A stretch of DNA of 48,012 nucleotides, taken from positions 1 to 48,012 of the forward strand of contig CALZHT010000055.1 in assembly GCA_945787445.1 (NCBI GenBank), read 5' to 3'. Numbering within the stretch: position 1 is the stretch's first letter; every line of letters begins with the position of its first letter. This document shows, piece after piece, positions 218 through 31,721 of the stretch. The DNA is from an uncultured Desulfobulbaceae bacterium. Lineage in GTDB: Bacteria; Desulfobacterota; Desulfobulbia; Desulfobulbales; CALZHT01. The notes below the pieces were generated by a model, which was not told the DNA's origin, ran no database searches, and saw only the letters and a list, made by a program, of their open reading frames with translations. Made by a program: the position numbers and the translations under genes.

Positions 218-1714
218 TCATTCCTGCAGAAGATATTGGGCGGGTTGTATCCCATACGCTGACGGGTGCACAGATTGGACAACATTTCTCAGAAAGTCCC
301 CGGTTTGCGGATGCCGTTCCCTAAGGTCCACCTCTGCGCCTTTCACAAAGCCCCTTTGACCATCCGGCTCCAGCAATAAAATTCGAGGCCGGTCCAGTTC
401 TTCCGACTCAGATGCACCAGATACAAGTCCCATAATCCCATTGTCGAGAAGAAGCAGGGTGCCGAGGGGGTACACTCCGAGCATGTTGATAAAAACCTTG
501 AGCAGAAGTGGATCAAAGTCTGTACCGCTGCCTTCCTGCATTTTTGCTAGGGCTTGATCCGGAGTCAAAGGTTCAGAACGATATACCCTTGCTGAAGTGA
601 GGGCGTCATAAACATCAGCTATTGCCAGGATACGGCCAAAAAGACTTATTGGTTTTTGCCACTGGACAAAGGGATAGCCTTGCAGATTATATTTGAGGTG
701 GTGCTCGAACGGAGCAAGAAGGATTTTGGCCTTGCGGTCACGGGAAGCTCTGAGCCTGACAATGAGGCGGGCACTATTGAGCGAGTGCATTTGAATTTCT
801 TTAAACTCTTGATCATTCAGCTTGCCGGGCTTGTTGAGAATATCCGGGGGCAGCCATATTTTGCCAAGATCATGAAACAGTCCGCAAATCCCAAGCCTTT
901 CCATGGCAGGCTTCGGCAACTTAATATGCTTTCCGAGGCACATGGAAAGGATCGCCACATTCACTGAATGGGTGTACGTATAGTCGTCATAAACTTTAAT
1001 GGTGCTCAAGGTCAGATATATGGACTCATCCTGTATAAGGTGTTCCACCATGTTTTGGACAATCCGTACTCCCTTCCTGATGCCGGAACGCTTTTTAGTG
1101 AATAGTTTTTGGCCCATCTCCTTAATTGATGCTAACGCATAGGAGTAATCTTTCCGTCCCCTGTCCTTACGTTCCTGAACGGATAATTCTTTTTTATCTT
1201 GTTCGACCGGAGAATCGTCCGTTTCTGGCGCGTCTTGTTCATCCGGGTGTTCGATAATAACCCATGGGAGATCTTCTTCCTCAACTCTGTGGATGAGCCA
1301 ATCCAAAGGTTTTTCTTCATGCTCAGCCTGGTTCAGAAGGCGTGCAAAAGTAAGAATCTGTTCACTTGCGGCATTGGTGATAGATTGATAAATGCACATT
1401 TCCTGCAGACCTCGTTTCTCAAAATACTGCAGCATATTTTTGAAAAGTTGCTCGCTTTTTTTACGGAGAGTTAGCTTCTCGTCCTGGAAATAAAACCTGC
1501 CGCCATAAACCTGAATAGTCAAAGAGTCATCATCACTGATGAGATGGTGGACAGAGTCGGTAAATTTTTTAACGCAATCTTTTACGAGTTGGTTATTGTC
1601 CTGGTGGATCCTGATTGTCTGGACAAGGCTGTTCAAGGCAATAAGAAATTGCTCTCCCATATATTTTTCAGAATGATTAGGAAAAGTATCCCGCGGTTGC
1701 AACGTATCAGACAT
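218..1714 (-). CDS. HD-GYP domain protein, probable c-di-GMP phosphodiesterase
   Basis: 498 residues, probably cytoplasmic, with no signal peptide or membrane span. The C-terminal half carries the HD-GYP signature: H249 (YTHSVNVA), H281-D282 with K285 (FHDLGK), the PPDILNKPGKL loop, H310, paired H338-H339 followed by QGYP at 345-348, and D367 in IADVYDALTSARVYR. Members of this family hydrolyse cyclic di-GMP and often control motility or biofilm formation. All expected metal ligands are present, so it is probably active. The N-terminal ~200 residues are helical, with an acidic stretch near 150-180, and match no domain I recognise; they may be the sensory part. The ATG lies one base after the stop of the upstream HEAT-repeat gene, so the two are almost certainly co-transcribed and translationally coupled. 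Substrate is inferred from family. Confidence 0.88.
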   Translation of the reverse strand: MSDTLQPRDTFPNHSEKYMGEQFLIALNSLVQTIRIHQDNNQLVKDCVKKFTDSVHHLISDDDSLTIQVYGGRFYFQDEKLTLRKKSEQLFKNMLQYFEKRGLQEMCIYQSITNAASEQILTFARLLNQAEHEEKPLDWLIHRVEEEDLPWVIIEHPDEQDAPETDDSPVEQDKKELSVQERKDRGRKDYSYALASIKEMGQKLFTKKRSGIRKGVRIVQNMVEHLIQDESIYLTLSTIKVYDDYTYTHSVNVAILSMCLGKHIKLPKPAMERLGICGLFHDLGKIWLPPDILNKPGKLNDQEFKEIQMHSLNSARLIVRLRASRDRKAKILLAPFEHHLKYNLQGYPFVQWQKPISLFGRILAIADVYDALTSARVYRSEPLTPDQALAKMQEGSGTDFDPLLLKVFINMLGVYPLGTLLLLDNGIMGLVSGASESEELDRPRILLLEPDGQRGFVKGAEVDLRERHPQTGDFLRNVVQSVHPSAYGIQPAQYLLQE

Positions 1715-3659: not shown

Positions 3660-3978
3660 TATACAACAAATATGGACAAGCCCCGCCCTTGGCTCGGATG
3701 GCTTGCACACCGAGGGGTTGTACGACAATCTCGGCGGCAGAAAGCGCTATATAATCTTTGATGCGTTGCCGGTCTTCAATGAAGAAGGGACGCTGGGGAC
3801 GGTCGTCGAGACCTTGCAGGTGTCACTGAAAACAAGAATGCCGAAGAGCTTAAGGAAATCCATCGCTGGAAAGAAAAATTTTCCAGCCTTTATCCCCATC
3901 TGTGCTCCCTGCAAAAAAATCCGGGATGAAAAGGCTTGTTATCGTTTTTTTGGTAAAAGCACTACACGGATTTTATAA
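3660..3978 (+). pseudogene. Relic of a PAS-domain sensor protein
   Basis: One frame reads IIFDALPVFNEEGTLGTVVETLQ, typical of the end of a PAS domain. The natural continuation, VTENKNAEELKEIHRWKEK, lies in the next frame from about 3820. The reading then returns to the first frame as PICAPCKKIRDEK, a motif common after PAS domains in sensor proteins. At least two frame changes are therefore needed, there is no upstream start with a ribosome site, and the remaining kinase or cyclase domain is missing. I read this as a decayed fragment rather than the 91-residue open frame that happens to span it. Confidence 0.6.
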
Positions 3979-4380
3979 GCACAGTGAATTTACCACAAGC
4001 TCTCTTTCCATAATACCTGGATTTTCATAAAGCTCGTCCATGAGCCTTGCAGGTTCAGGATGGTTCGCGACCATTAACCATTTGAAATGGTTGTAGTTGA
4101 TGAGATCCATGGTTTGAAACTGCAAACCGATACCCGTGGCATTTGCATAGCACTCCGTGCATTCAAAGTCTATGACAACGCCACGTCTTTCCTCTGGCAG
4201 TTTCAGTATGCAATCAATCTGTTCGCCAGGATTAAATGCCAGATCATGGGCGGGATCTACCCGCATGCCGCCGAAACTGATATTTTTCGTCTGACATTGC
4301 AGGATTTTTCCGTTTTTGAATTTTAGAATAACTTGAAGAACTAAAGGCAGACGCTGGTGTAATCTTTTTTCAAACATCAT
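3973..4380 (-). CDS. PilZ domain protein
   Basis: 135 residues from the ATG at 4378-4380, chosen because GGGGGAG lies just upstream; a longer in-frame extension to 4434 lacks a ribosome site and adds a stretch unlike the family. It has the PilZ c-di-GMP-binding signatures: a basic EKRLHQR segment at the N-terminus, NISFGGMRV (the N/DxSxxG motif) about 30 residues later, and a beta-rich middle ending in GIGLQF. PilZ proteins are c-di-GMP receptors. With the HD-GYP gene it places two c-di-GMP proteins within 4.4 kb, though they are not one operon because the relic and a promoter-sized gap lie between. The last bases overlap the PAS relic on the opposite strand. Confidence 0.82.
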   Translation of the reverse strand: MMFEKRLHQRLPLVLQVILKFKNGKILQCQTKNISFGGMRVDPAHDLAFNPGEQIDCILKLPEERRGVVIDFECTECYANATGIGLQFQTMDLINYNHFKWLMVANHPEPARLMDELYENPGIMERELVVNSLCL

Positions 4381-4562
4381 CACTCCCCCTCTTCCCCAGT
4401 AGTAAAAAACAGAAAGCCTATATACTAGAAGCAAAGCAATAATTTTATCTGTTCCTTAACACTATGTATTTTAAAATGTAACTTGAGATACGGCAATAGA
4501 AAAGTGCCAAATGTACGGACAAAAGATTGAAGTTATGCTCTAAGCTGCTAAATTTTTTGTGT

Positions 4563-10429: not shown

Positions 10430-10583
10430 TGGTTTCATAAATTTTTTACTTCCAAGCAGAGTGATGTCGCTTTTAATTATTAGTGGCTTGACAATTTTGC
10501 TGCAGTCATGAAAAGCTCAAGCTAAGTTGGGGAGAAGAAGGGATCGTACTGGGAATAAATATCTAGAGCAAAAGGTAATACTC

Positions 10584-13500
10584 ATGAAATTGTCACGCCT
10601 AATACTGTTAATAATAATTGTGCTGTTGCTGGTAGTTTCCGGCCTGGTTGCCATGACTCCCAGTTGGCTTTCCGGTGCTTCTGGAAGGAATTTCCTTCTC
10701 AAAAAAATCAATGGCAGCATTCCGGGGAAGGTGGAAATCGGATCATTGGAACTTGCTTGGTTCGGCGGCCAGTCTATAGGAGATATGAAATTTACCGCGC
10801 CTGACGGCAAACCGGTCTTCACCCTTGACCGGTTTGCCTCCGAAGCATCGCTTTGGGCAATCATTCGGAAAAAACTATCGCTTGGTCGCACCGAAATCGT
10901 TGGTTTTCATGTCGAGCTTGCTACAGATGAGAGCGGTGTTTCCAATTTCCAACAGGCATTGGGAGTTGAAGAAGAGAAAGCAAAAAAGGAAAGGGTTTCT
11001 GACCGACGGCGTGAAAAGATCAGAGTTCCTTTACCCATAACCGGAGAGATCATTATTTCCGACTGCAGTATCCGGTTGCAGAGTATGGATATTGAGCCGG
11101 TATTGATCCACAATGTCAATGGTGGATTGCGATCTGCCGCTGGCACTACTCCCATTACATTGACTTTGGATGGTGATGCCGAGCAAGGAAAACGGACTGG
11201 GAATTTCAAAGTTGAAGGTACGCTTGATAAATTTGATGAAGAAAATATCCTGGCTCCAGACCACATGAAAGCCCAAATCACCGTTGCCGCAAGTAGCCTG
11301 CCTGTAGATGGTTTGGACCAGCTCCTGCAGATGCAGGGACTATTGCGCACAGCTTTGGGCAGCCAGTTGGATTCAGTAATCAAAGGCTCGGTGGATGAAG
11401 GGAAAGCCGAGATAGCCATATCGGTCAAGACTGAGAATGTGTCTGCTGAAGTGGCCTCAAAGATGGAAAATGGCCAGCTGGCACTTACGAAGCCTGCCAG
11501 GGTGACCGGTGACTTCACCTCGGATTTACTGGCCCTCCTTGCCAGGGATGTCGGAAAAGAAGTGCGTCTTGCTCGAAACGTGCCCTTTACCTTTGAAATC
11601 GAACAGTTGGATTTGCCGATTACCGGATTTAATATGAGGACTGCCGCGTTCAAGGCAACGTTTGCAGTGGCTGATGGTAAGATCCTTGGACAAGCACCCT
11701 ATGATGGGCTGGGTTGGGGCGACCTCAAAGCAATGATAGACTCACCGGCGCTCGGTCAGGAGCTTGCCTTGAATTTTTCGGGAAAGGCCTTGAAGGATTC
11801 AGAAAAAGGGGAGTTTCTGGTTGATGCAAAGTTGAAGGATCTTTTTGACAGCCATGGCGGTTTTCAACTTGAGGGGATGCAGGCCGATGCAATTGTCAAA
11901 CTTACTGCCTTGCCGGCCCCATTCATTGAAGGTTTTATAGGCCAGCCCGGACTTCTATCCGCTGCACTGGGATCAAATATAAACCTGACCATAGCCAGCA
12001 GGAGTAAAGGTGCTGAGGCTATTGAAATAGATGTTTCTTTGCAGACAAAGCAGATGCAGGCTGACATTCCTCTCATCATCAAGGAGAATCTGGAACTTAA
12101 AAATCAGGCCGATATCCGGATGAACATTTCGCCGGCTCTCGTTGAGAGATTTGTGCCGCCGGAAAAATTCCAACTGAACAAGGAGGCGCCTGTCCAATTG
12201 GCAATTACCCGAATTGTGGTACCGCGTCCCAAAATTGGAGAATCCCTTTTTCAGCCCCAACGCATGGCTGTTGATGCCAATTTATATGCTGCGGATGTCA
12301 GCTTTACTACTCCACAGACCGGAAAAGCGGGCACACGTGAGGTGCGCCTTAAAATGGATGGGAAGAGTCTTGAGGCTTTGATGTTTTTCGGTCAGGTCGA
12401 AATTGTCCAGGAGGAACCCAAGGGTCTTGTCCACACAACTCTGGGGGCTGCCACTAATCTTACCTTTAACGGCAAAGCTGGTATTGATGCTGACAAGGTT
12501 ATTGCGGTGCCTTCCTTTGCCATCAGCGGCGAGAGCGAAAAGCTTAAGAAGCTTACCTTGCGGGGGATGCTGGATCCGGGATTTTCGCGTTTCTCCCTCA
12601 GCGAACCGGCCATCATCCAGTATGCGTTATCACCTGCACTGCTCAGCAGTTTTATGCCGGAAAAAAAAGAGGCGCCGGTCCTTTTGGAAGAGGCTTTGGT
12701 GGATTTGACCATGGAAAAGGTTGACGTCCAATTGGATCCTGTGGATTTTCTCAAAACCCAATTATCTTTCAAGGGATCAATCCCGGAATTGCGTTTCAAG
12801 GGAGCAGAACCGCTTGGCAGAGTATCTCTCCATGATATAAACTTGACCATGCTGGCTGCTGGCCAGGAAAATCATGCTGCTATCCGTGCCGAAGGCAAGA
12901 CCTTTTATGAGGCGGCAAAAACTTCCGGCTTGTTTCTGCTTGATGCACGCATTGACAATATGTTGCAGAAAGAGGGGCTTGATATGGCCCAGGCCAGGAC
13001 TGATGCAAAACTCAAGCTGGATAATATACCGGTTGGACTTATTGAGGCGGCTGCCGGTCAGTCGGGAGAATTGGTGCCTGTGATCGGTGACAAAATAGGG
13101 GTGGACATGCAGGCCAAGCTTGAGGCGTTTTCCCCGCCAAAGGGCGTTATGGATATATCAGCAGAAAGCGATCGTCTTAAGATTGACGCCGGCCTCGGGT
13201 TTGCTGAAACTCTAAATCTTAAGCGCCCGGCAACCCTATCTTTAACCCTGACCCCGGAGGCGTTTACCAAGTTACTCCAAGGCAAGACCGAGGCGGGAAG
13301 TTCAAAAAAGGTCACGCCCTTGGTGCGGCTCGCAAAACCGGCTGCCATCAAAGCAGAAGTTCGCTCGCTCACCTATCCTTTGCTCCCGGAGGAAGAGAAA
13401 GCAAAGGTGCCTTATAACAATATTGCTTTTGCCATGCATGGATCGGTTGACGGTTTGCTCCTGAACCACGATCGTTCAAAGGAGGCGGCAGGCTTTGAGT

Positions 13501-14666
13501 CTCTCAATGCCGCGATCAATACCGGTAATCTGGCCAAGGAGGTTACTATCAGTATCAGAGGGCAGACCACAGCAAGCGGCGGAGGAGCAAAGGGACCGAT
13601 CACCATCGATGGCCGCCTGCAGGACATTATTACCGCAGATGGCACGCTGAACACAAAGGGATTTTCAACCACCTTTGATGCTGCTTTTGAAAATGCTCCG
13701 GTAGGATGGTTTGATGGGTTGCTGGATGCTGGAGAACGACTGACGGCGGTTCTGGGTGATGCGATAAACCTCAAAGCAAGTGCTAAACTCACCAAGATGT
13801 CGGGCCCGGTTTCAGTGGAGATCAATGCGACCAACACCAAGGCCAATCTCAAGGGAACAATAAAAGATACTGTTTTTGTGTTGAATGAACCGTTTCAGTC
13901 GGCAACAACGGTAACTCCAAAGTTCGGGCAGGTGATTTTAAAGGATGTGAATCCACTTCTGGTCCACGCGGTAAGTGCGGATCGTCCCCTCACGCTTGCG
14001 GTAGATAAAAAGGATTTTCTTGTGCCGCTGAAACCATTTTCTCTGAAAGACACGCGGATCGGCAACGCGAGGATTGAGGGGGGAACCTTTATCCTGCAAA
14101 ACGGCGGGGTGCTGCGGGCTCTTATGAATTTACTCAAGCGCCAGGCGCCGGAGCAATTGCAGGCGCAATTCACTCCATTTGCCGGCCACATGAAAGGCGG
14201 CATTGCGCAATATGAGAGGACTGATATTACCCTTGGAGGGAATGTCAAGGTTGCCAGTTGGGGTACCATCGATCTGATACACGATCAGATGGACATGAAA
14301 TTGGGGCTCACGGCCGTAACCTTAGACAAGGTTCTTGGTATCGACGGTGTCAGCGCAGATGATATTGTACAGATTCCGGTTAAAGGCCCCACCGGAAAGC
14401 CACGGATTGACTGGAGCAATGCAACACGCCAAATTGCCACGTATACGGCCGGGAAAAGCCTCGAACGAAAGGCACCCGGCGCCTCGAAAATAATTGAGAA
14501 AATTTTAGGCGGCGGCACTCCTGCTCCTAGAGCTAGTCAGCCTCCGCCTGGTCAGAAGCAGCCGCAAGGGAAGGAACAGCAAAAACCATCCACCGGCAAA
14601 ACGGAGGAGTTGTTTCCTTTTTCAAAAGAGCTGATTGATATTTTTCAGCAGCAAAAGAAAAGATAA
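10584..14666 (+). CDS. Very large AsmA/TamB-like envelope protein
   Basis: 1360 residues from the ATG at 10584, which has AAAGG ten bases upstream; the frame stays open to 10527 but the extension is hydrophilic and would bury the membrane anchor. MKLSRLILLIIIVLLLVVSGLVAM is a single N-terminal anchor, followed directly by an AsmA-like segment (INGSIPGKVEIGSLELAWFGGQ) and then repeated beta-rich blocks of amphipathic strands typical of the AsmA/TamB/YhdP superfamily. The C-terminal block (DIVQIPVKGPTGKPRIDW) resembles the end of AsmA-type domains. A Pro/Gln/Lys-rich tail follows. Superfamily members bridge inner and outer membranes and move phospholipids or affect outer-membrane assembly. Family assignment comes from architecture, since residue conservation is low. 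It stands alone, divergent from the RND exporter. Confidence 0.78.
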   Translation: MKLSRLILLIIIVLLLVVSGLVAMTPSWLSGASGRNFLLKKINGSIPGKVEIGSLELAWFGGQSIGDMKFTAPDGKPVFTLDRFASEASLWAIIRKKLSLGRTEIVGFHVELATDESGVSNFQQALGVEEEKAKKERVSDRRREKIRVPLPITGEIIISDCSIRLQSMDIEPVLIHNVNGGLRSAAGTTPITLTLDGDAEQGKRTGNFKVEGTLDKFDEENILAPDHMKAQITVAASSLPVDGLDQLLQMQGLLRTALGSQLDSVIKGSVDEGKAEIAISVKTENVSAEVASKMENGQLALTKPARVTGDFTSDLLALLARDVGKEVRLARNVPFTFEIEQLDLPITGFNMRTAAFKATFAVADGKILGQAPYDGLGWGDLKAMIDSPALGQELALNFSGKALKDSEKGEFLVDAKLKDLFDSHGGFQLEGMQADAIVKLTALPAPFIEGFIGQPGLLSAALGSNINLTIASRSKGAEAIEIDVSLQTKQMQADIPLIIKENLELKNQADIRMNISPALVERFVPPEKFQLNKEAPVQLAITRIVVPRPKIGESLFQPQRMAVDANLYAADVSFTTPQTGKAGTREVRLKMDGKSLEALMFFGQVEIVQEEPKGLVHTTLGAATNLTFNGKAGIDADKVIAVPSFAISGESEKLKKLTLRGMLDPGFSRFSLSEPAIIQYALSPALLSSFMPEKKEAPVLLEEALVDLTMEKVDVQLDPVDFLKTQLSFKGSIPELRFKGAEPLGRVSLHDINLTMLAAGQENHAAIRAEGKTFYEAAKTSGLFLLDARIDNMLQKEGLDMAQARTDAKLKLDNIPVGLIEAAAGQSGELVPVIGDKIGVDMQAKLEAFSPPKGVMDISAESDRLKIDAGLGFAETLNLKRPATLSLTLTPEAFTKLLQGKTEAGSSKKVTPLVRLAKPAAIKAEVRSLTYPLLPEEEKAKVPYNNIAFAMHGSVDGLLLNHDRSKEAAGFESLNAAINTGNLAKEVTISIRGQTTASGGGAKGPITIDGRLQDIITADGTLNTKGFSTTFDAAFENAPVGWFDGLLDAGERLTAVLGDAINLKASAKLTKMSGPVSVEINATNTKANLKGTIKDTVFVLNEPFQSATTVTPKFGQVILKDVNPLLVHAVSADRPLTLAVDKKDFLVPLKPFSLKDTRIGNARIEGGTFILQNGGVLRALMNLLKRQAPEQLQAQFTPFAGHMKGGIAQYERTDITLGGNVKVASWGTIDLIHDQMDMKLGLTAVTLDKVLGIDGVSADDIVQIPVKGPTGKPRIDWSNATRQIATYTAGKSLERKAPGASKIIEKILGGGTPAPRASQPPPGQKQPQGKEQQKPSTGKTEELFPFSKELIDIFQQQKKR

Positions 14667-18164: not shown

Positions 18165-18332
18165 TGAGCCAGGAAGGGTAAGTTGAACATGCATAGCGAA
18201 GTGCATTCCCCGCAGCTTGCTGCGGGGTAAACGAGCGAATGTAATAAAATCAAAAAGTCCTTACATACGGAGAATCCCCGTGGCTTGCCACGGGGAGCTT
18301 CAATATTCCTTCCCGGCTTTCAAATATTTGAG
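18165..18332. repeat. REP-like paired palindromes
   Basis: Two hairpins with the same CTTG loop: CCCCGCAG/CTGCGGGG at 18208-18227 and CCCCGTGG/CCACGGGG at 18276-18295. The stems differ by compensating changes. Imperfect inverted flanks (GCCAGGAAGG.. and CCTTCCCGGC) enclose both. This is a bacterial interspersed mosaic arrangement of REP sequences; such sequences are typically mobilised by RAYT transposases, one of which is encoded at 30644-31660. The rest of 17995-18439 has no gene I can support. Confidence 0.75.
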
Positions 18333-18439: not shown

Positions 18440-19450
18440 ATGAAAGTGCTTAATAACATTCGGATAATTATTTTTTTACCCTGCCTTGCAGCGGTTTTCT
18501 TGTTTTGCCACTCTGTAATGGCAGAAAATTCAGAGACCTTGCAAGGGGAACCATTTACAGATCCCTCCTACACGCAACAGATGCCATCCAGTTGGAAAGA
18601 CCAACCAATAAGGCATGATCCGGATGTCGGTCAGGTCGATCTTGCCGTTACCCTTGATCAGCATCTTTATCGAGCTATAAAAGGAATGATTGAAAATTAC
18701 GCTGCTGAACACGGCTTGAAAATTTCCGTCAGTGATGGTACCTGTGGCATTACGGCCGGGAAATTAGTGCGCAAGGCCGTGGATGTGGGTGGATTTTGTT
18801 GTCCGCCGGGCAAGACCGACCGGTTGCCGGGTCTCCTGTTCCATACAATCGGGGTGGTGCCCATCGTCCTTCTGGTTCATCCTGAAAACCCTATAGGCGA
18901 TATCACCTTGCAGGAGGCCCGCAAGATTTTCCAGGGGGAAATGTATCGTTGGTCTGAACTCAAGAACTCAAATGGGCAACAGGGCCCTGATACTAAAATA
19001 CAGCCGATTGGGCGGCTGCATTGCAAGATCAGACCAGGCCACTGGCGGCTGTTGCTTGACAATGAAGATCTTTTCAGCCCCCGACTCCAGGAAGTCGGCA
19101 CCATTCCCGATATGATCTCTCTTGTTGCCGCAACTCCAGGTGCTATCGGTTATGAGGTCATGATGATGGTCGAGCGCTATCGGAGTGAAGGAAAGGTCAA
19201 AGCCCTGAAGATTGATGGCATTGCGCCGAACAGGACCAATCTTCTGTCCAGGAAATATCCTCTCTACCGTACTCTTAATATCACAACCTGGCAGGGGGAA
19301 AAGGTCAAAATGCAGCATGCTCAGGAGTTGGTTGATTTTTTGCTGGGCCAGGAAGTGCGCCTTGACAACAAATTTAACATCATCCCGGCGTCAAGCCTTC
19401 GGCAGATGGGTTGGCAATTTAAGGGCAATGAACTGATTGGTAGCCCCTAA
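18440..19450 (+). CDS. Phosphate-type periplasmic substrate-binding protein
   Basis: 336 residues from the ATG at 18440 (AAGGA seven bases upstream); an in-frame ATG at 18416 would only extend the signal peptide. MKVLNNIRIIIFLPCLAAVF..SVMA is a signal peptide. The mature part is a PBP-like fold of the PstS group: AIGYEVMMM, the hinge GVVPIVLLVHPENPIGDITLQEARKIFQGE and the C-terminal ALKIDGIAPN..YPLYRTLNI. The typical SGSG phosphate loop is replaced by DGTCGITAGK, with three Cys in the ligand region, so the ligand may not be phosphate. No ABC permease or ATPase is adjacent. The next gene, 21 bases downstream, is a membrane sensor kinase, so this protein probably serves as its ligand-binding partner (inference). 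Confidence 0.78.
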   Translation: MKVLNNIRIIIFLPCLAAVFLFCHSVMAENSETLQGEPFTDPSYTQQMPSSWKDQPIRHDPDVGQVDLAVTLDQHLYRAIKGMIENYAAEHGLKISVSDGTCGITAGKLVRKAVDVGGFCCPPGKTDRLPGLLFHTIGVVPIVLLVHPENPIGDITLQEARKIFQGEMYRWSELKNSNGQQGPDTKIQPIGRLHCKIRPGHWRLLLDNEDLFSPRLQEVGTIPDMISLVAATPGAIGYEVMMMVERYRSEGKVKALKIDGIAPNRTNLLSRKYPLYRTLNITTWQGEKVKMQHAQELVDFLLGQEVRLDNKFNIIPASSLRQMGWQFKGNELIGSP

Positions 19451-19471
19451 AAGATCCTGATAAGAAATACT

Positions 19472-21808
19472 ATGGCACGGCGGTTTTTACAAAGAATTCC
19501 TCTGACAGTAAAGATGGTCCTTCTTACCGTCGTAGTAGGGATTTTCACCGGGGCTGTGTTGGATTATTTTCAGACCCGCACAGTCAGAAATATTTTTGTG
19601 GCCCAGTTGAAGGAAAATCTCAACCTGGAGGCTCAGGAAGCACGTATCCGTTTTGACAACTATATAAAAGGACACCATCAATCCGTAAAACTGATTATTT
19701 CACAAAAACAACTCGCTGATTATATAGACCGAAAAGATTGGGCGTCCAGATCCGAGGTGGTATTCCATCGGCGCAGTCCACCATGGCTGCCGAGACCATC
19801 CGTGCTGCGCTCCCTGGTCCAGATACGCAATGCCTTACTTCTGGATGGAGATGGAAAGACAAGAGAAGTATATCAGAGCTTTCCGGAACCACTGCCTGAT
19901 TCACTCCTTGCTCCCACCGACCTCTTGCAGCGGCTGACCCACAATCAGGCCTTTATGACCTATATCGGTGGAGAGCCTTTTTTGGTTGCATCAGAATCTT
20001 TACGGGATTCTCAAGGCAAGTTCCTGGCTACAATGATGCTGGTCTGTCCTTTGGATGAGGAGTTTCTCCTTGCTTCGCAGGGACCTCATTATGGGCATGT
20101 GTTTGCGCTGGTGACAGGGGAGAAGGCAAGAGTCCTCATAAGCAGTGATCCTGCCCAGATACCATCATTCACAATGATCGATGATCTGGAAGACAGCTAT
20201 CTGGTCACCGGAAAGTCGCTTTTTGATTACGGCGCCTCAGACCTGGTCCTGGGATTCGCCTCCTTTATCTCATTGGAAGAGGTTGAGTCCTTAATCAGTA
20301 CAGTTATTGCAAGAGATAGACAGCAGCGGGTAATATCGGTCCTTATTTTTATCGTAGCCTTTGCGTTGATCATGTTTTTAATTACAAGACGTATCGAGCG
20401 ACTTACTGGGCGTATTTCCGATTTTTCTGAGAAGGTCCTGCGCGGTAAACCGCAAAGACTGGGACTTGGCGATGAATTGGATATTCTGGAAGACCGCTTC
20501 CAGCGTCTCACGGAAGAGGTTGTTTCTGCGCAGGAAATCATTAAAAGGGACTATTTTTTTCAGAGCACGATCAGTTCGATCTTAAAGATTGCTCTAGAGC
20601 CCATTTCCCTTGACAAACAACTTGACCGTATATTGGAGGCCATTCTTTCCATACCATTTCTTTCCCTGCAAGCAAAGGGCAGTATTTTTCTGGTTGAAGA
20701 TGAACCGCAAGTTCTGGTGATGAAAGCCCAATACGGCATGTCCAGAGCAATAAAGACTGCCTGCGCGAAAATTCCCTTTGGTAAGTGCCTCTGCGGATTA
20801 GCCGCATCTACACACGAAATTGTCTTTGCCGATCATGTTGACGACCGTCATGAAATCACCTGCGAAGGCATGCCGTCACATGGTCATTATTGTTTACCGA
20901 TCCTGTTGGGGAAAAACGTTCTTGGCGCACTAAATTTATACGTGGAAGAAGGTCATAAACGTAATCCCGATGAGGAGAAGCTGCTGGTTTCGGTGGCAAA
21001 TACACTGGCCGGAGTCATTGAGCACCGACATACGGAACAGGAAAAGGAGAAACTCCAGGAAGAACTTGCCCAGGCTGAAAAACTCACGGCGCTCGGCAGA
21101 CTTACGGCAAATGTTGCCCATGAAATACGAAATCCTCTTACATTGGTGGGGGGATTTGCACGGAGATTGAATAAGAAACTTTCATCGAATATAAGTGAAA
21201 AAAAATATTTAGAAATAATAATTTCAGAAGTAAGCAGGCTTGAAAAAATATTATTAAACGTCCTGACGTATTCCAAAGAAACCGGCCTTAAGTTGGATGA
21301 TCATGATATCAATGCAATAATTGAGGAAGTTTTACAGATGTATGAGACGAGGTTAAAGGAAAAGTCCATACAAATACGGAAATCGCTTCATGAGGTCCCC
21401 AAAATAATGATCGATAAGGAGCAGATTATAGGAACAGTAAGCAATCTGATATCAAATGCGATAGATTTCATGCCGGAGGGGGGAAGTTTGACCATCTCCA
21501 CTCAAAAGGAAATTCGAAAAGGGGCAGCGTATCTGAATGTGAAAGTTACCGACACCGGAGCCGGAATACCTGAAGATAAGTTAGGCATCATCTTTGAACC
21601 TTTTTTTACAACAAAGTTTTTAGGGCATGGCACAGGGTTAGGGTTGTCCATTTGTAAGAAGACCGTGGAAGACCACGGTGGTTTTATTACTGTGGAAAGC
21701 AGCATCGGCAGAGGTTCACGGTTTATTATCCTCCTGCCTTATGAACACAAGGAATTACGTTCTGGAAAGATCCTTGCGATACAAAAAAAGACCGGGACAA
21801 ACAATTAA
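19472..21808 (+). CDS. Membrane sensor histidine kinase with GAF domain
   Basis: 778 residues. One span near 13-31, a ~250-residue periplasmic sensory region, a second span (VISVLIFIVAFALIMFL, about 286-308), a HAMP-like linker, a GAF domain (about 360-510, with three Cys in PFGKCLCG and EITCEGMP), a coiled coil, and a kinase core. The H-box VAHEIRNPL has H550; the N-box is LISNAIDFMP, then DTGAGIPEDKLGIIFEPFFTTK regions and a G-box GHGTGLGLSICKK near 718. It is a complete, probably active kinase. No response regulator is encoded nearby, so the partner is orphan. It is 21 bases from the binding-protein gene and almost certainly in the same operon. Confidence 0.9.
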   Translation: MARRFLQRIPLTVKMVLLTVVVGIFTGAVLDYFQTRTVRNIFVAQLKENLNLEAQEARIRFDNYIKGHHQSVKLIISQKQLADYIDRKDWASRSEVVFHRRSPPWLPRPSVLRSLVQIRNALLLDGDGKTREVYQSFPEPLPDSLLAPTDLLQRLTHNQAFMTYIGGEPFLVASESLRDSQGKFLATMMLVCPLDEEFLLASQGPHYGHVFALVTGEKARVLISSDPAQIPSFTMIDDLEDSYLVTGKSLFDYGASDLVLGFASFISLEEVESLISTVIARDRQQRVISVLIFIVAFALIMFLITRRIERLTGRISDFSEKVLRGKPQRLGLGDELDILEDRFQRLTEEVVSAQEIIKRDYFFQSTISSILKIALEPISLDKQLDRILEAILSIPFLSLQAKGSIFLVEDEPQVLVMKAQYGMSRAIKTACAKIPFGKCLCGLAASTHEIVFADHVDDRHEITCEGMPSHGHYCLPILLGKNVLGALNLYVEEGHKRNPDEEKLLVSVANTLAGVIEHRHTEQEKEKLQEELAQAEKLTALGRLTANVAHEIRNPLTLVGGFARRLNKKLSSNISEKKYLEIIISEVSRLEKILLNVLTYSKETGLKLDDHDINAIIEEVLQMYETRLKEKSIQIRKSLHEVPKIMIDKEQIIGTVSNLISNAIDFMPEGGSLTISTQKEIRKGAAYLNVKVTDTGAGIPEDKLGIIFEPFFTTKFLGHGTGLGLSICKKTVEDHGGFITVESSIGRGSRFIILLPYEHKELRSGKILAIQKKTGTNN

Positions 21809-25520: not shown

Positions 25521-25705
25521 CATTTCCAGATTAAATGAAAGCTTGCGGTAAGCGTATTGGCTTGCTAGGTTATTGGAATGAAGTCGAAATCTGGGCTGCA
25601 ATTTTCTGGATTCTAATTTGCACGTGATATCTTGAAAAAGAACAGAGTAAATAAACTTTGGAAACATATTGACTGTCGCTATTTTCGTGAATGAGGGCCA
25701 CAAAA

Positions 25706-28700
25706 ATGTCAACATTATTTAGGGTTGAATCAAAAGATATAGAAGGTCTAAATGACCTTCAATTGACAAAATTATTGAAATTGTTGCTTCATCTTGAGGC
25801 CAGGAGTGCCGGTATTGCGGAAAGAGCGGTAGAAGTGGCTCTAAATATCAATGTTCGAGATGGGGGGGAGGACGGGAGAATTCAGTGGTCCGGTGACCCT
25901 ATACACACCGACTTCCTTCCACATAATTTTATTCAGTTTCAAAATAAAGCTACCAATATGGGGCCTGCCGATTGTGCGAAGGAAATAACTAATACTGATG
26001 GGTCAATGAAGCATCTTGTCGAGGAAGTACTCGATAACGGTGGCGCATATATTCTTTTCACAACACAAGAACTAAATAAAGATCAGAAAAAAAATGAAAG
26101 AATAGCAAAGATCAGAAAAAAACTGGAAGAATTAGGCAAAGGATATGCGCATACAGTAATGATCGATATTTATGACGCTTCCAAAATTGAAGGCTGGGTG
26201 AATAAGTTCGTACCAGCAATTGTAGCAGTGTTGAATTGGGTCGGGAAACCCCTTGAGCGTGGACTTAAAACTTGGGAAAACTGGAGTCAGCACCCCGAAT
26301 ACCATCGATTTCGTTTTGTGGTTGATGAAAATAGAGCGGCTGCAATAAAAAGTTTGAGGAGTCTGTTGAACCTCAGACAGAAGTGCGCAAGAATTATCGG
26401 CCTTTCTGGCCTTGGAAAAACAAGATTAGCATATGAGTGCTTTAAAGATTCTGAGGAAATTGATGATCTGCAGATTCGGGTTGTGTATTTGAATGCCAAT
26501 GCAAATTCAGCGGCGCTCGGTTTGGTGAGTGATTGGATACAGTGCGGTTTGGAAGGAATAGTAGTCGTTGACAATTGCGATATCTCCTTGCATGACAAAT
26601 TACATAGAGAGGTTCAGAGATTTGACAGCAAACTCAGCCTGTTGACGCTGGATTACAATCTTGACCGTGCTAGCCAGACTGAAATTATTCACCTGAAAAA
26701 ATTACCAGATAAACTTATCAAAGAAATGTTAGAGCCCGTTTATGGAAGAGAAATTCATGACTTAGATCGAATAATTTCTTTTGCTCAGGGATTTCCTCAA
26801 ATGGCTGTTTTGCTTGCTGATGCCCGTTTAGATAGAGAGCCAGAAATGGGACGGTTAACTGATGATGAGTTGGCGTCTAAATTATTATGGGGTGGACGTA
26901 TTCCGTCAAAAGATGATGAGAATGTTTTGCGAGGGTGCTCTCTCTTTGATCGTTTCGGTGTTGAAGAGGAGGTTGCGATTGAGTATCAATTTATAGCGGA
27001 TGTGGTTGTTGGTACTGATCTGGACAGGTTTTATAGTTGCCTAAAAAGGTTTGAAGAAAGAGGGCTCATCGATCGGCGGGGGCGTTTCGCACGACTTGTA
27101 CCTAAACCGCTTGCAATTAGGCTTGCGGCTGAATGGTGGTGTAGAACTCGACCGGAGAGGCAAATTGAGATTATTCAATCAGAAATGCCAGGAAACCTAA
27201 TAGAGAGTTTTTGTAATCAAATTTCCCGCCTTGATTTTCTCCCAGAGGTAAAAGCACTTACTGAAAAATTATGTGGGGCGCAAGGCCCTTTTGGACAAGC
27301 GGAAGTGATCCTGTCTAACCGGGGTTCACGTCTCTTCCGCTCTTTGGTCGAGGTGAATCCCGAAGCAACTAGTAGAGTTCTCTCAAAAATACTCAAACAA
27401 TATAGTAATGAAGAATTATTCAATATTAGTGGTGACGTTCGTAGAAATCTTGTTTGGGCATTGGAAAAATTATGTTTCCACGAAGCATGCTTCGAGGAAT
27501 CGGCGAATTCTCTTCTGTTGTTAGCTTCTTCTGAAAACGAAAGTTGGGGTAATAACGCTACAGGTATTTTTAAGCAGTTGTTCAGAACTTTTTTGTCTGG
27601 GACCGAGGCACCGCCAACTTCGCGTCTACGGGTGATAGATAATGCTCTTAATAGCGATGGAGACACAGTAAGGGTATTAGCAGTCTCAGCACTTGAAGAA
27701 GCAATATGCACTTATAGTGGAGCTCGGTCAATAGGTGCTGAATACCAAGGAAGTGGTGAACCTCTTAAAGAATGGCGACCTAAAATTTGGAGTGAAGTTT
27801 TTAATTATTGGGAACAAGCGCTCGGACGATTGAGTAACTTAGTGACGGAGCGTGATCCTCTAGCTCTTGATGCAAAATCAGCCATTGCCAGAAATATTCG
27901 AGGTCTTATGCAATATGGTCGGGTTGAGGTACTCGATAATATAATAAAGAAATTTGTGGTTAAAGATGGCCCGCTTTGGCCGGAAGCACTTCAGAGTATC
28001 AAAGATGTCCTTCAATATGATGCTGATAAGATGCCAGATGATGGTAAAAATAAACTTTTTGAGTGGATGGCTCTGTTAACCCCAAGTGAATTGAGTGATA
28101 AACTAAACCTCATTGTCTCAAACCCATCTTATGAGCATGAAGAGGGAGAAGATGGGCACTACGTGAATGTTTCTGCAATTAATGCTAAAAAACTGGCTCA
28201 AGAATTAGCTTCAAACTTGTCAAGTATTCTTCCTTTTCTAGAAAATCTATTACATGGGGAGCAACGCCAGGCATATTGGTTTGCGAAAAATTTAGTGGAG
28301 GCTTCTGGGAACTGGGAGCCTCTTTTATCTAAAACAATAAGCGAAGTAGAAACCATTGATGAGCCAAATATCAGCTTATTACTCGGGATTCTAAACGGTA
28401 TTTTCTACCTGGATTCTTCTCAGTGGGAAGCAATTGTTGATAGTTTTACGGAATCAGAAAAGTTAATCCAGTTCTTCCCGTATGCAATAACCTCAGGCAA
28501 AGTAACAATTAATCAGCTCGATCGTTTAATCGAGCTTATAGGTCAGGATAAAATTGATGCAGTTAGCGCCAATAACTTAGTCTATGCGAGACCACTTGAA
28601 CATCTTACGTATGAAAATGTTTCTCAGTTTGTTGAAAACATGGCTTCGATATCAGAAAAGGCTGCCTGGGTGGGGCTCGATATACTTTTTATGTTTTGCC

Positions 28701-29467
28701 ATAGTGACTCAGAGAGGTGGGACGCATGCAAATCTACTTTCAGAAAAATTCTCGTCAAGTTGCCCTTTGATAAAGTCTATAAAAAACAGGGGCAACTCAA
28801 TATGTATCACTGGCATGATACCACAAAAAAATTATTGCAGGATGATGATGCACTTTTTGCCGTTGCTTTAACTAGAAAGATTGTCGAAAGCTGTTCAGAC
28901 AAGTTAAGTTTGGGGGATTTGTGGCACTACATTCACCCGGTAATAAGAATATTATTTAAACAATATGGGAAAGATGTTTGGCCAATTATTGCCGAGGCTA
29001 TCAAGGAAGCTGATCCTCTTGACCAATATAGGTTAATGCAGCTTCTGGACTCTGGGAATTCGTTTGACAAGAAATCTCCAAGTGTTTTGGCTGACCTTGA
29101 TACTGGTTTACTGCAAGAATGGTGTTTTCAAGAACCTGAAATGGCACCAGAATTTGTGGCCAGGGCAACAGATGTGCTGTTAGAGGAAGGAGAAAAGTAC
29201 TATGTTTCTCCAAGAGCTAAATTCTTAATAGATAATTTTGGGGATAATGAACATGTTTTATCTGCTTTATCCGCAAATATGTCTTCTTTTGGTTGGAGCG
29301 GCTCTCTAGTTCCATATTTACAGAAAGAGGTAGAAGCTCTTCAGTTTTTAAAAGAACATAAAAAAACGAGTGTTAGGTCTTGGGCCAAAAGAAGAATTGA
29401 TTACCTCAACAAAATGATAGAGCGAGAAAAGCGCCGCGATGAAGAACATGATTGGGGTATTCATTAA
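25706..29467 (+). CDS. Nuclease-STAND NTPase-helical repeat protein, probable anti-phage defence
   Basis: 1253 residues from the ATG at 25706, chosen because GAGGG lies eight bases upstream; an ATG at 25691 has none. Residues ~1-170: D52-GGED-G57 followed by FIQFQNKAT (Q79-x-K81), the D..QxK pattern of a PD-(D/E)xK restriction-type nuclease. Residues ~190-370: STAND/AP-ATPase core with P-loop GLSGLGKT (232-239) and Walker B GIVVVDNCD (284-292). Then a winged-helix segment (FEERGLIDRRGRFARLVPKPLA). Residues ~450-1250: long all-helical repeats ending in a coiled, basic tail. This is the layout of Avs-type defence proteins: effector, NTPase switch, target sensor. Codon use is much richer in A/T than in the flanking core genes. 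It is a single gene with no partner. Family and function are inferred; I cannot tie it to a named Avs type. Confidence 0.72.
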   Translation: MSTLFRVESKDIEGLNDLQLTKLLKLLLHLEARSAGIAERAVEVALNINVRDGGEDGRIQWSGDPIHTDFLPHNFIQFQNKATNMGPADCAKEITNTDGSMKHLVEEVLDNGGAYILFTTQELNKDQKKNERIAKIRKKLEELGKGYAHTVMIDIYDASKIEGWVNKFVPAIVAVLNWVGKPLERGLKTWENWSQHPEYHRFRFVVDENRAAAIKSLRSLLNLRQKCARIIGLSGLGKTRLAYECFKDSEEIDDLQIRVVYLNANANSAALGLVSDWIQCGLEGIVVVDNCDISLHDKLHREVQRFDSKLSLLTLDYNLDRASQTEIIHLKKLPDKLIKEMLEPVYGREIHDLDRIISFAQGFPQMAVLLADARLDREPEMGRLTDDELASKLLWGGRIPSKDDENVLRGCSLFDRFGVEEEVAIEYQFIADVVVGTDLDRFYSCLKRFEERGLIDRRGRFARLVPKPLAIRLAAEWWCRTRPERQIEIIQSEMPGNLIESFCNQISRLDFLPEVKALTEKLCGAQGPFGQAEVILSNRGSRLFRSLVEVNPEATSRVLSKILKQYSNEELFNISGDVRRNLVWALEKLCFHEACFEESANSLLLLASSENESWGNNATGIFKQLFRTFLSGTEAPPTSRLRVIDNALNSDGDTVRVLAVSALEEAICTYSGARSIGAEYQGSGEPLKEWRPKIWSEVFNYWEQALGRLSNLVTERDPLALDAKSAIARNIRGLMQYGRVEVLDNIIKKFVVKDGPLWPEALQSIKDVLQYDADKMPDDGKNKLFEWMALLTPSELSDKLNLIVSNPSYEHEEGEDGHYVNVSAINAKKLAQELASNLSSILPFLENLLHGEQRQAYWFAKNLVEASGNWEPLLSKTISEVETIDEPNISLLLGILNGIFYLDSSQWEAIVDSFTESEKLIQFFPYAITSGKVTINQLDRLIELIGQDKIDAVSANNLVYARPLEHLTYENVSQFVENMASISEKAAWVGLDILFMFCHSDSERWDACKSTFRKILVKLPFDKVYKKQGQLNMYHWHDTTKKLLQDDDALFAVALTRKIVESCSDKLSLGDLWHYIHPVIRILFKQYGKDVWPIIAEAIKEADPLDQYRLMQLLDSGNSFDKKSPSVLADLDTGLLQEWCFQEPEMAPEFVARATDVLLEEGEKYYVSPRAKFLIDNFGDNEHVLSALSANMSSFGWSGSLVPYLQKEVEALQFLKEHKKTSVRSWAKRRIDYLNKMIEREKRRDEEHDWGIH

Positions 29468-30628: not shown

Positions 30629-31721
30629 GGGACGTACTTCAGATTATAAGTTTCTATCGTCAACGATTGTATAATTCTTTTCTTCCGCTAATTTTCTTCC
30701 CCGGTCCACTGCTGAACTCACAGCCGGTTGCGATATCCCAAGCCTCTGGGACAGCCAGGCCTGGCTCAAACCCAACTCACTTGTCACCCAGAAACACAGT
30801 AAACTTCGCGCTGCAACAGTTTGCCTTTTTTTCCCACTGGCCAGTACATCACTTGAAGATATCTTCAGAAGATCTGTAATTTGTTCCACCACTTTGTCAA
30901 AGTCAACACCCTGGGCCTGCAGCAGAAATTTCCTTTCCATTTTTTCCACGGATTTTCGAAGAACTTCCTCGACAAAATCATCATCGCCAAGAATGCGCTC
31001 ATCCCCTTTCTGATACGCCTTGGCCCTGCGAAGTTCCCTTACCGCTGCCCAGCCTCCATGACTGCGAATCAAGCCGCCTCCAATAAGATCTTTTCGCCTG
31101 CCCATGGCAATTCCATCCTGGACATACAACTGGTAACCTGATCGCGCTGCCGACAACCTGGAACCAAACAGAGAAAGCACATGATCGGTATCCTGCCATT
31201 CCCGTGCAACCTTGCCCATGATGGCGCTGTGGCCGCAAAATGGGTAGCTCTGCAACTCTTGGTAGTTTTTGACCAGTTTAGCACGTAACGGATTGAGATG
31301 AATGTAACGGACCAGTTCGAGCAGATAGACATCTTCCTGACAGAGTATGGATTTATAACGGTTCTGGAAAAGATGGCCGCTACGGCGGTAGCGCCGATTA
31401 AAGTATATCGCATATCCGGTTAATAATCGGCGCATAACGGATGAGATCGGCGTGGAGCCGGTTCGCAGAAGGAGATGAAAATGGTTCGGGATTAAGGACC
31501 AGGCAAAACAGGGTGTTTGCGTGTCAGAAAGAATAGCGTCAAGGCGCTCAAGAAACTTGCCCCGGTCCGTGTCATCTTTGAAAATTTTCTTCCGCTCGAT
31601 GCCCCTGACTATGATATGATGAAGCGCACCAGGAGCATCGATTCTCGATTTGCGTGGCATGTGTCAGTATTATCAAAATCAGACACTGAATGCAAGAAAC
31701 TTATAATCTGAAGTACGTCCC
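30629..31721 (-). mobile_element. REP-associated Y1 transposase element
   Basis: A 1.1-kb unit with perfect 27-bp inverted ends at 30629-30655 and 31695-31721, starting GGGACGTACTTCAGATTATA. The only gene is the Y1 transposase, whose TAA stop is inside the left end. Flanks beyond the ends share an ATAGG/ATAAG-like stretch, but no clear target duplication is visible, as expected of Y1 elements. It appears complete. Confidence 0.8.
30644..31660 (-). CDS. REP-associated tyrosine (Y1) transposase
   Basis: 338 residues. N-terminal Y1_Tnp (IS200-like) domain: PRKSRIDAPGALHHIIVRG start, the HUH pair H60-F-H62 in PNHFHLLL, and LLELVRYIHLNPLRAKLV with the likely catalytic Tyr119. The C-terminal third adds a DnaA/Trp-repressor-like helix-turn-helix (LGLSQAWLSQRLGISQPAVSS), typical of RAYT proteins. 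HUH Y1 enzymes cut and join single-stranded DNA using hairpins near the element ends. It is intact, so it could act on the REP-like palindromes elsewhere in this genome. Coding runs to within 70 bases of the right inverted end. Confidence 0.9.
   Translation of the reverse strand: MPRKSRIDAPGALHHIIVRGIERKKIFKDDTDRGKFLERLDAILSDTQTPCFAWSLIPNHFHLLLRTGSTPISSVMRRLLTGYAIYFNRRYRRSGHLFQNRYKSILCQEDVYLLELVRYIHLNPLRAKLVKNYQELQSYPFCGHSAIMGKVAREWQDTDHVLSLFGSRLSAARSGYQLYVQDGIAMGRRKDLIGGGLIRSHGGWAAVRELRRAKAYQKGDERILGDDDFVEEVLRKSVEKMERKFLLQAQGVDFDKVVEQITDLLKISSSDVLASGKKRQTVAARSLLCFWVTSELGLSQAWLSQRLGISQPAVSSAVDRGRKLAEEKNYTIVDDRNL

What the first reader, a model, noticed from the sequence alone, without database searches (positions are those of the whole stretch)
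18440..21808. Periplasmic binding protein paired with a sensor kinase, no transporter
The PstS-like gene ends 21 bases before a complete GAF-containing histidine kinase. There is no ABC permease or response regulator. The ligand loop (DGTCGITAGK) and extra Cys differ from PstS. The pair may be a ligand-sensing module for an unknown anion or metal.
Basis: partly seen in the sequence, partly recalled or inferred. Interest (0 to 1): 0.55.

Follow-up and report, generated by a model that had tools for sequence, protein, structure and literature searches.

The report
Cysteine-armed binding protein feeding LuxQ-like sensor
A protein related to bacterial phosphate-binding proteins has had phosphate-gripping residues replaced by a conserved set of cysteines and histidines and travels with a membrane sensor shaped like the quorum sensor LuxQ, so it most likely reports an as yet unknown chemical outside the cell instead of importing phosphate.

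Summary
In detail: a PstS-fold periplasmic binding protein (18440-19450) ends 21 bases before a complete GAF histidine kinase (19472-21808); no permease or response regulator was found in the window. The pair is conserved. In 95 distinct relatives (Desulfobulbaceae, Nitrospirae, Magnetococcales, Gammaproteobacteria, Magnetovibrio) the next gene encodes a receptor with the same sensor domain in 79, in 42 of these with overlapping genes. No PstC/PstA-like permease was found in the family loci held. The predicted sensor domain matches solved LuxQ periplasmic domains best (Z 15.1; next fold 12.3). The receptor's output varies: histidine kinase, kinase-receiver, GGDEF, GGDEF-EAL or HD, with at least 6 to 10 switches on a quick tree. 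The binding protein keeps C102, C120, C121, H194, C195 and H201; C102 and C120 align with E. coli PstS Ser38 and Asp56. Best reading: a LuxPQ/NspS-MbaA/AioXS-like sensing pair with a thiol-rich pocket, for a soft metal or metalloid, a sulfur species, or redox state. The ligand is not shown. Against strict pairing: 14 of 72 Magnetococcales-class binding proteins lack an adjacent downstream receptor, and 51 of 109 receptors were not matched to one. New variant of a known kind; ten paper searches listed no description of it.

The parts
18440..19450 (+). Periplasmic binding protein of PstS fold (336 aa), no permease partner
18440..18523 (+). Likely Sec signal peptide, residues 1-28 (cut site after VMA read by eye)
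   Evidence: hydrophobic 1-29; cut site is inference
18737..18748 (+). Loop 1, G100-T-C102-G103; C102 aligns with E. coli PstS Ser38
   Evidence: C102 in 95 of 95
18797..18808 (+). Loop 2, C120-C121-P-P; C120 aligns with E. coli PstS Asp56
   Evidence: C120 94 of 95, C121 95 of 95
19019..19048 (+). Second-lobe signature H194-C195-K-I-R-P-G-H201-W-R; H194 aligns with E. coli PstS Asp137
   Evidence: H194 and C195 95 of 95, H201 93 of 95
19451..19471 (+). 21-base gap between the two genes (4-base overlap in 25 of 79 adjacent pairs of relatives)
19472..21808 (+). Sensor histidine kinase (778 aa)
19487..19573 (+). First hydrophobic segment, residues 6-34
19574..20317 (+). Periplasmic sensor domain, residues 35-282, predicted fold closest to LuxQ
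20318..20401 (+). Second hydrophobic segment, residues 283-310
20606..21022 (+). GAF domain, residues 379-517
   Evidence: PF13185, E 3.2e-10
21092..21277 (+). HisKA domain, residues 541-602, HEIRNP box at 550
21416..21745 (+). HATPase_c domain, residues 649-758, N, G1 and G2 boxes intact

Best explanation
The two genes form one extracytoplasmic sensing unit of the LuxPQ / NspS-MbaA / AioXS type. The binding protein is exported, binds its ligand between its two lobes with a thiol-rich pocket (C102 and C120/C121 from one side, H194, C195 and H201 from the other), and its closed or open form acts on the LuxQ-like periplasmic domain of the membrane receptor, which changes the receptor's cytoplasmic kinase activity. 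In relatives the same input is wired to c-di-GMP enzymes or other kinases. Shown by computation: conserved pairing, no transport partner found, conserved Cys/His set, predicted folds, exchange of outputs. Inferred: contact between the two proteins, ligand-driven switching, and that the cysteines touch the ligand. Likely ligand class: something that thiolates hold (soft metal or metalloid such as copper or arsenite, or a reactive sulfur species).
For: Receptor is the next same-strand gene in 79 of 95 distinct loci, with a 4-base overlap in 25 and any overlap in 42 of the 79. In 16 genomes searched with both profiles, 22 of 23 full-length binding proteins have the receptor directly downstream (compared by eye). 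In all 48 genomes held of the Magnetococcales class, 58 of 72, and the 38 genomes with the binding protein all have the receptor domain. Distances of binding protein and sensor domain correlate: 77 pairs r 0.784 (2000 permutations, largest 0.166); six paralogue pairs of one genome r 0.836, rank 5 of 720. No PstC/PstA-like permease among the ORFs of the family loci held, while PstS control loci ring. Sensor-domain model: the five best solved structures are all LuxQ (Z 15.1 to 14.6), then 12.3. Binding-protein model: best matches are phosphate-binding proteins (Z 26.0). C102, C121, C195 and H194 in 95 of 95, C120 94, H201 93; 78 of 95 hold exactly four Cys from F39 on. C102/Ser38 and C120/Asp56 in the alignment. 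GGDEF, EAL or HD domains in 38 of 95 neighbourhoods against 7 of 243 control neighbourhoods of the same loci.
Against: 14 of 72 Magnetococcales-class binding proteins have no adjacent downstream receptor, and 51 of 109 receptors were not matched to an adjacent binding protein (two of the 51 do lie near one: G577:C40 and G622:C160). Four of 27 receptors also lack one. One receptor keeps its operon slot without the binding protein (L264). 13 of 95 loci show no receptor within reach, one of them cut by a contig end. Five of 43 receptor-bearing genomes of that class have no strong binding-protein match. The Cys positions rest on alignment; no model coordinates were available, so sulfur distances were not measured. 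Four Cys in a periplasmic protein could simply be two disulfides. The correlation is not corrected for species descent except in the single-genome test. No ligand, binding or signalling experiment exists.
Confidence: 0.75

Rival explanations
1. Redox sensor: the four cysteines switch between thiols and disulfides, perhaps through the adjacent C120-C121 pair, and the oxidation state, not a bound solute, drives the receptor.
For: Exactly four Cys from F39 on in 78 of 95, so few others to pair with. Carriers include groups known from oxic-anoxic interfaces (names; ecology recalled).
Against: Does not by itself explain the conserved H194, H201, R192, R198 and W202 nor the kept two-lobed fold.
Confidence: 0.2
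2. Structural disulfides only: the cysteines brace the loops, and the ligand is an ordinary oxyanion (phosphate-, sulfate- or molybdate-like) sensed for the receptor.
For: PstS fold with Arg135 kept as R192; other PstS-like proteins beside chemoreceptors or kinases occur in the same order.
Against: C102 and C120 fall on two phosphate-binding positions and Asp56 is lost; an adjacent CC pair is an unusual brace (recalled).
Confidence: 0.2
3. Arsenite (or antimonite) sensor like AioX, in which Cys106 holds the arsenic.
For: AioX uses a cleft cysteine and belongs to a kinase system (PMC5908839, abstract and Results read).
Against: No arsenic gene among the neighbours whose Pfam domains were looked up, which are all larger window genes but only a small part of the relatives' neighbours; AioX resembles PhnD, this protein PstS.
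Confidence: 0.12
4. Phosphate-binding protein of a scattered Pst transporter, next to an unrelated kinase by chance.
For: Match to TIGR02136 below the cut-off.
Against: Conserved pairing and no permease found; phosphate residues replaced. Two other loci of the same genome score higher on the PstS model (177.7 and 101.7 bits, both also below the 206.6 cut-off). The genome was not searched for a Pst permease.
Confidence: 0.03

Closest known systems
LuxP-LuxQ (Vibrio autoinducer-2 sensing)
   Same: Periplasmic binding protein plus membrane kinase; the predicted sensor domain matches solved LuxQ periplasmic domains best, two of them from LuxP-LuxQ complexes.
   Different: Here the binding protein has the PstS fold with a Cys/His set, not the LuxP sugar-binder type (recalled), and the output varies.
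NspS-MbaA (Vibrio polyamine sensing)
   Same: Binding protein controls a GGDEF-EAL receptor (PMC8967002, abstract and first part of the Introduction read); relatives here have GGDEF-EAL outputs.
   Different: NspS binds polyamines; another binding-protein family (recalled). The window receptor is a kinase.
AioX-AioS (arsenite sensing)
   Same: Binding protein with a sensing role, a kinase partner and a cysteine in the cleft (PMC5908839, abstract and Results read).
   Different: AioX is PhnD-like with one key Cys, and the XSR cluster includes the regulator; here PstS-like, four Cys, no regulator in the window and outputs exchanged among relatives.
PstS / TIGR02136 phosphate-binding proteins
   Same: Fold and ancestry.
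   Different: Below the model cut-off, Ser38 and Asp56 replaced by Cys, no Pst permease found.

Membership tests
PBP_like_2 (PF12849) | Score over the curated cut-off | tested here: met
   50.2 bits against 27
PstS (TIGR02136) | Score over the curated cut-off | tested here: not met
   65.7 bits against 206.6; the cut-off rings in 8 of 14 control genomes
PstS (TIGR02136) | Phosphate-binding residues kept | tested here: not met
   Ser38 to C102, Asp56 to C120, Asp137 to H194; Arg135 kept as R192
PstS (TIGR02136) | Encoded with PstC/PstA/PstB | tested here: not met
   none in the window; no PstC/PstA among ORFs of the family loci held; PstS loci L038, L039, L175, L176, L189 ring
LuxP-LuxQ | LuxQ-type periplasmic domain | tested here: met
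   top five solved structures are LuxQ, Z 15.1 to 14.6, next 12.3; a predicted model
LuxP-LuxQ | LuxP-type binding protein | tested here: not met
   only PF12849 among Pfam families at E 0.1; phosphate-binding proteins fill the top structural matches
LuxP-LuxQ | Binding protein contacts the receptor and sets its activity | not testable with these tools
   adjacency and correlated distances only
AioX-AioS | PhnD-like AioX binding protein with Cys106 | tested here: inconclusive
   not among the 50 listed structural matches, which does not exclude it; Pfam shows PF12849 only
AioX-AioS | Adjacent response regulator (XSR cluster) | tested here: not met
   no receiver domain among 35 window proteins
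NspS-MbaA | Binding-protein gene beside a GGDEF-EAL receptor | tested here: not met
   not in the window (kinase output), though met in relatives such as L009 and L012
NspS-MbaA | Polyamine binding | not testable with these tools
   no ligand assay

The most novel reading that the evidence does not exclude
A hitherto undescribed, output-swappable sensing module in which the phosphate pocket of PstS was rebuilt into a four-cysteine, two-histidine site that captures a soft metal, metalloid or reactive sulfur species in the periplasm and reports it through a LuxQ-like receptor, often to c-di-GMP. A second group with the same GGC/CCP/HC signature (L177-L183) sits before another type of kinase, so the pocket may be older than the receptor it now serves.
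Probability: 0.4. Interest if true: 0.72.

Novelty: new variant of a known kind. Interest (0 to 1): 0.55.

Why it matters
Ligands of most bacterial receptors are unknown. Here one conserved pocket is linked to at least five kinds of output in several phyla, so one ligand identification would inform all members. It would also show how a transport binding protein was turned into a sensor by swapping oxyanion-binding residues for thiols. The only NCBIfam model that the three family members scanned touch is PstS, always below its cut-off, so a name drawn from it would mislead.

Tried and rejected
Phosphate transport: rejected by the lost Ser38 and Asp56 and the missing permeases. Chance neighbourhood: rejected. 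Strict one-to-one pairing: rejected by the orphans. Neighbour genes as ligand clue: a DUF3369-HD protein, rhodanese, MOSC, aldose epimerase and others near relatives show no common metabolic partner; only GGDEF, EAL or HD domains recur. The structure list for the binding protein shows no AioX or PhnD rows among the 50 shown; this excludes nothing. Ten paper searches listed no paper whose title or abstract start describes this family; supplements and most subscription papers were not searched. A tie to magnetotactic lineages (38 of 48 in the Magnetococcales class; 1 of 289 in the class of Magnetovibrio) was noticed but not tested.

Limits of my own scans. My ORF filter drops genes under longer antisense frames; it lost G009 (L026, L192). 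My single-sequence receiver seed misses receivers that Pfam finds (L160 and the GGDEF gene of L013), so kinase and kinase-receiver labels are rough and I rest the window claim on Pfam. Left out of the 95: G009, G602 (L144, stop inside), G1038 (L259, partial and weak), L023 (remnant), and repeats of one locus. The 95 are not all hits: only part of the 72 strong Magnetococcales-class copies was fetched with flanks. A first count of output switches (11) had counted loci without a receptor as a state; recounted on 72 labelled of 95 rows it is 10, or 6 with kinase and kinase-receiver merged.
Full report
Observation. Both genes are as described: a binding protein at 18440-19450 and a kinase at 19472-21808, 21 bases apart on the + strand. 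The binding protein belongs to PF12849 (E 4e-13) and falls well short of the PstS model TIGR02136 (65.7 against 206.6 bits). The kinase has a GAF, HisKA and HATPase_c domain, intact catalytic boxes and two hydrophobic segments that bracket a periplasmic region. No permease or receiver domain is among 35 window proteins scanned with Pfam, and PstC, PstA and PstB seeds find nothing. The same genome has two other loci with higher PstS-model scores (177.7 and 101.7 bits, also below the cut-off).

Relatives. One scan of genome contigs gave 22 loci: 21 relatives at 42-65% identity in Desulfobulbaceae, Nitrospirae/Thermodesulfovibrionia, Magnetococcales, Magnetovibrio and Gammaproteobacteria (one named Thiohalobacter), and one remnant (L023). 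Genome searches found strong matches in 5 of 193 genomes of the window's order, the window's included (20 of 193 at E 1e-10, the rest distant PstS-like), 2 of 395 of its phylum, the window's included, 38 of 48 of the class of the Magnetococcales genome G574 (39 of 48 at E 1e-30; up to six strong copies per genome), 11 of 369 of the gammaproteobacterial sample, 18 of 245 of the Nitrospirae sample, one of them partial, and 1 of 289 of the class of Magnetovibrio, which is that genome itself. The larger groups are even draws, not censuses.

Pairing. In 16 genomes searched with both profiles, 22 of 23 full-length binding proteins (in 15 genomes) have the receptor directly downstream and the last has it upstream on the same contig; 4 of 27 receptors stand alone (compared by eye). 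In the class of 48, 58 of 72 have the receptor directly downstream; the 14 others lie in genomes that all hold a receptor not matched to a binding protein; 51 of 109 receptors are not so matched; 38 genomes have the binding protein, 43 the receptor, and the 38 lie within the 43. Over 95 distinct loci the receptor is next in 79, one gene further in 2, upstream in 1 and not seen in 13 (one cut by a contig end). Of the 79, 25 overlap by 4 bases, 42 overlap at all and 71 lie within 50 bases (starts are the first possible ones). Distances of binding protein and sensor domain correlate over 77 pairs (r 0.784; permutations up to 0.166), over 33 pairs of the Magnetococcales class (0.887) and over six paralogue pairs of one genome (0.836, rank 5 of 720).

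Output exchange. Pfam shows GAF or PAS histidine kinases, kinase-receivers, HisKA_2 kinases, GGDEF, GGDEF-EAL or HD outputs behind the same sensor domain. On a quick tree of the 95 binding proteins the receptor output changes at least 10 times among 72 labelled rows, or 6 if kinase and kinase-receiver are merged. In eight loci the binding protein follows a receiver or GGDEF gene; of three checked with Pfam, two are receiver-PAS-GGDEF and one, cut at a contig start, receiver-PAS. L013 carries receptor, receiver-PAS-GGDEF gene and binding protein in one row, which suggests how the split loci may work together. GGDEF, EAL or HD domains occur in 38 of 95 neighbourhoods and in 7 of 243 control neighbourhoods from the same loci.

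Folds. The binding-protein model (pLDDT 87.2) matches phosphate-binding proteins best (4gd5, Z 26.0, rmsd 2.1, 238 aligned). The receptor's N-terminal model (pLDDT 84.5) matches LuxQ periplasmic domains in ranks 1 to 5 (2hje Z 15.1, rmsd 3.4, 194 aligned), then a drop to 12.3. Two of these five, 2hj9 and 1zhh, are complexes of LuxQ with its binding protein LuxP.

Pocket. In 95 sequences C102, C121, C195, H194 and R128 are invariant, C120 is kept in 94 and H201 in 93; 78 have exactly four Cys from F39 on, 16 five and 1 three. Aligned with E. coli PstS, Ser38 falls on C102, Asp56 on C120, Arg135 on R192 and Asp137 on H194; Ser139-Thr141 fall in a gap beside C195. That Ser38, Asp56 and Arg135 bind phosphate is established knowledge (recalled, Luecke and Quiocho). 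Cysteines on both sides of the cleft would let a soft ligand close it; this is inference, as no coordinates were at hand. AioX gives precedent for a cleft cysteine: Cys106 holds arsenite (PMC5908839, Results read).

A second group. Seven loci of the same order (L177-L183) encode shorter binding proteins with the same GGC, CCP and HC signature. In all seven the next gene, of 574-586 aa, overlaps by 4 bases and matches the kinase part of the window kinase (as L028, L032-L036 and L043). In L177, the one checked with Pfam, it is a HAMP kinase followed by a sigma-54 response regulator, with a MacB/FtsX-type transporter and a propeller-like protein on the other strand. The signature therefore is not tied to the LuxQ-like receptor. 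Other PstS-like proteins of the order sit beside chemoreceptors (L184, L185, L187 and the window's own genome, L190).

Verdict. A real, widespread but patchy sensing pair, working like LuxPQ, NspS-MbaA or AioXS, and a full member of none of them by the features tested. Steps shown: pairing, no transport partner found, output exchange, predicted folds, residue conservation. Steps inferred: ligand class, contact, direction of switching. Binding proteins that stimulate receptors are a known general mechanism (PMC9602780, passages read); the new points are the family, its thiol signature and its exchanged outputs.

Noticed in passing
L177-L183 (e.g. L177:6582-7418): Second group of PstS-like proteins with the same GGC/CCP/HC signature, overlapping a kinase gene; in L177 also a sigma-54 regulator, a MacB/FtsX transporter and a propeller-like protein nearby.
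   Followed up: partly
L190 and L191 (own genome C14 and C84): Two other PstS-like proteins of the window's genome: one beside a chemoreceptor, one followed by a kinase-receiver protein.
   Followed up: partly
L184, L185, L187: PstS-like proteins with a Cys at the Asp56 position (GGTCR or GGSCR) directly before chemoreceptors in the same order.
   Followed up: partly
L023:6031-6318: Remnant of the binding protein with the middle missing: the GTCGITSGR stretch runs straight into LHCKIRPGHWR.
   Followed up: no
L137, L138, L151, L157, L160, L161: Binding-protein gene behind a GGDEF gene, preceded in several by genes that look like pilus ATPases PilT/PilU (recalled from sequence, no Pfam test).
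   Followed up: no
window 18210-18227 and 18278-18295: Two similar GC-rich hairpins (expected 0.04 by shuffling) just upstream of the binding-protein gene; an IS200-like (Y1) transposase lies at 30647-31660, so a REP-type link is possible.
   Followed up: no
window 221-1714 and 3976-4434: An HD-domain protein and a PilZ-domain protein about 14-18 kb away: possible c-di-GMP genes in the same window, no link shown.
   Followed up: no
window 10527-14666 and 25691-29467: Two very large proteins (1379 and 1258 aa) without any Pfam match at E 1e-6.
   Followed up: no
class of Magnetococcales and class of Magnetovibrio: Family in 38 of 48 Magnetococcales-class genomes but 1 of 289 in the Magnetovibrio class; a tie to magnetotactic lineages is untested.
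   Followed up: no
window 18440-19450: On the quick tree the window's binding protein groups with Desulfobulbaceae copies next to a Nitrospirae-sample copy (L243), apart from other copies of its own order (L024, L025, L027), which suggests horizontal transfer.
   Followed up: partly
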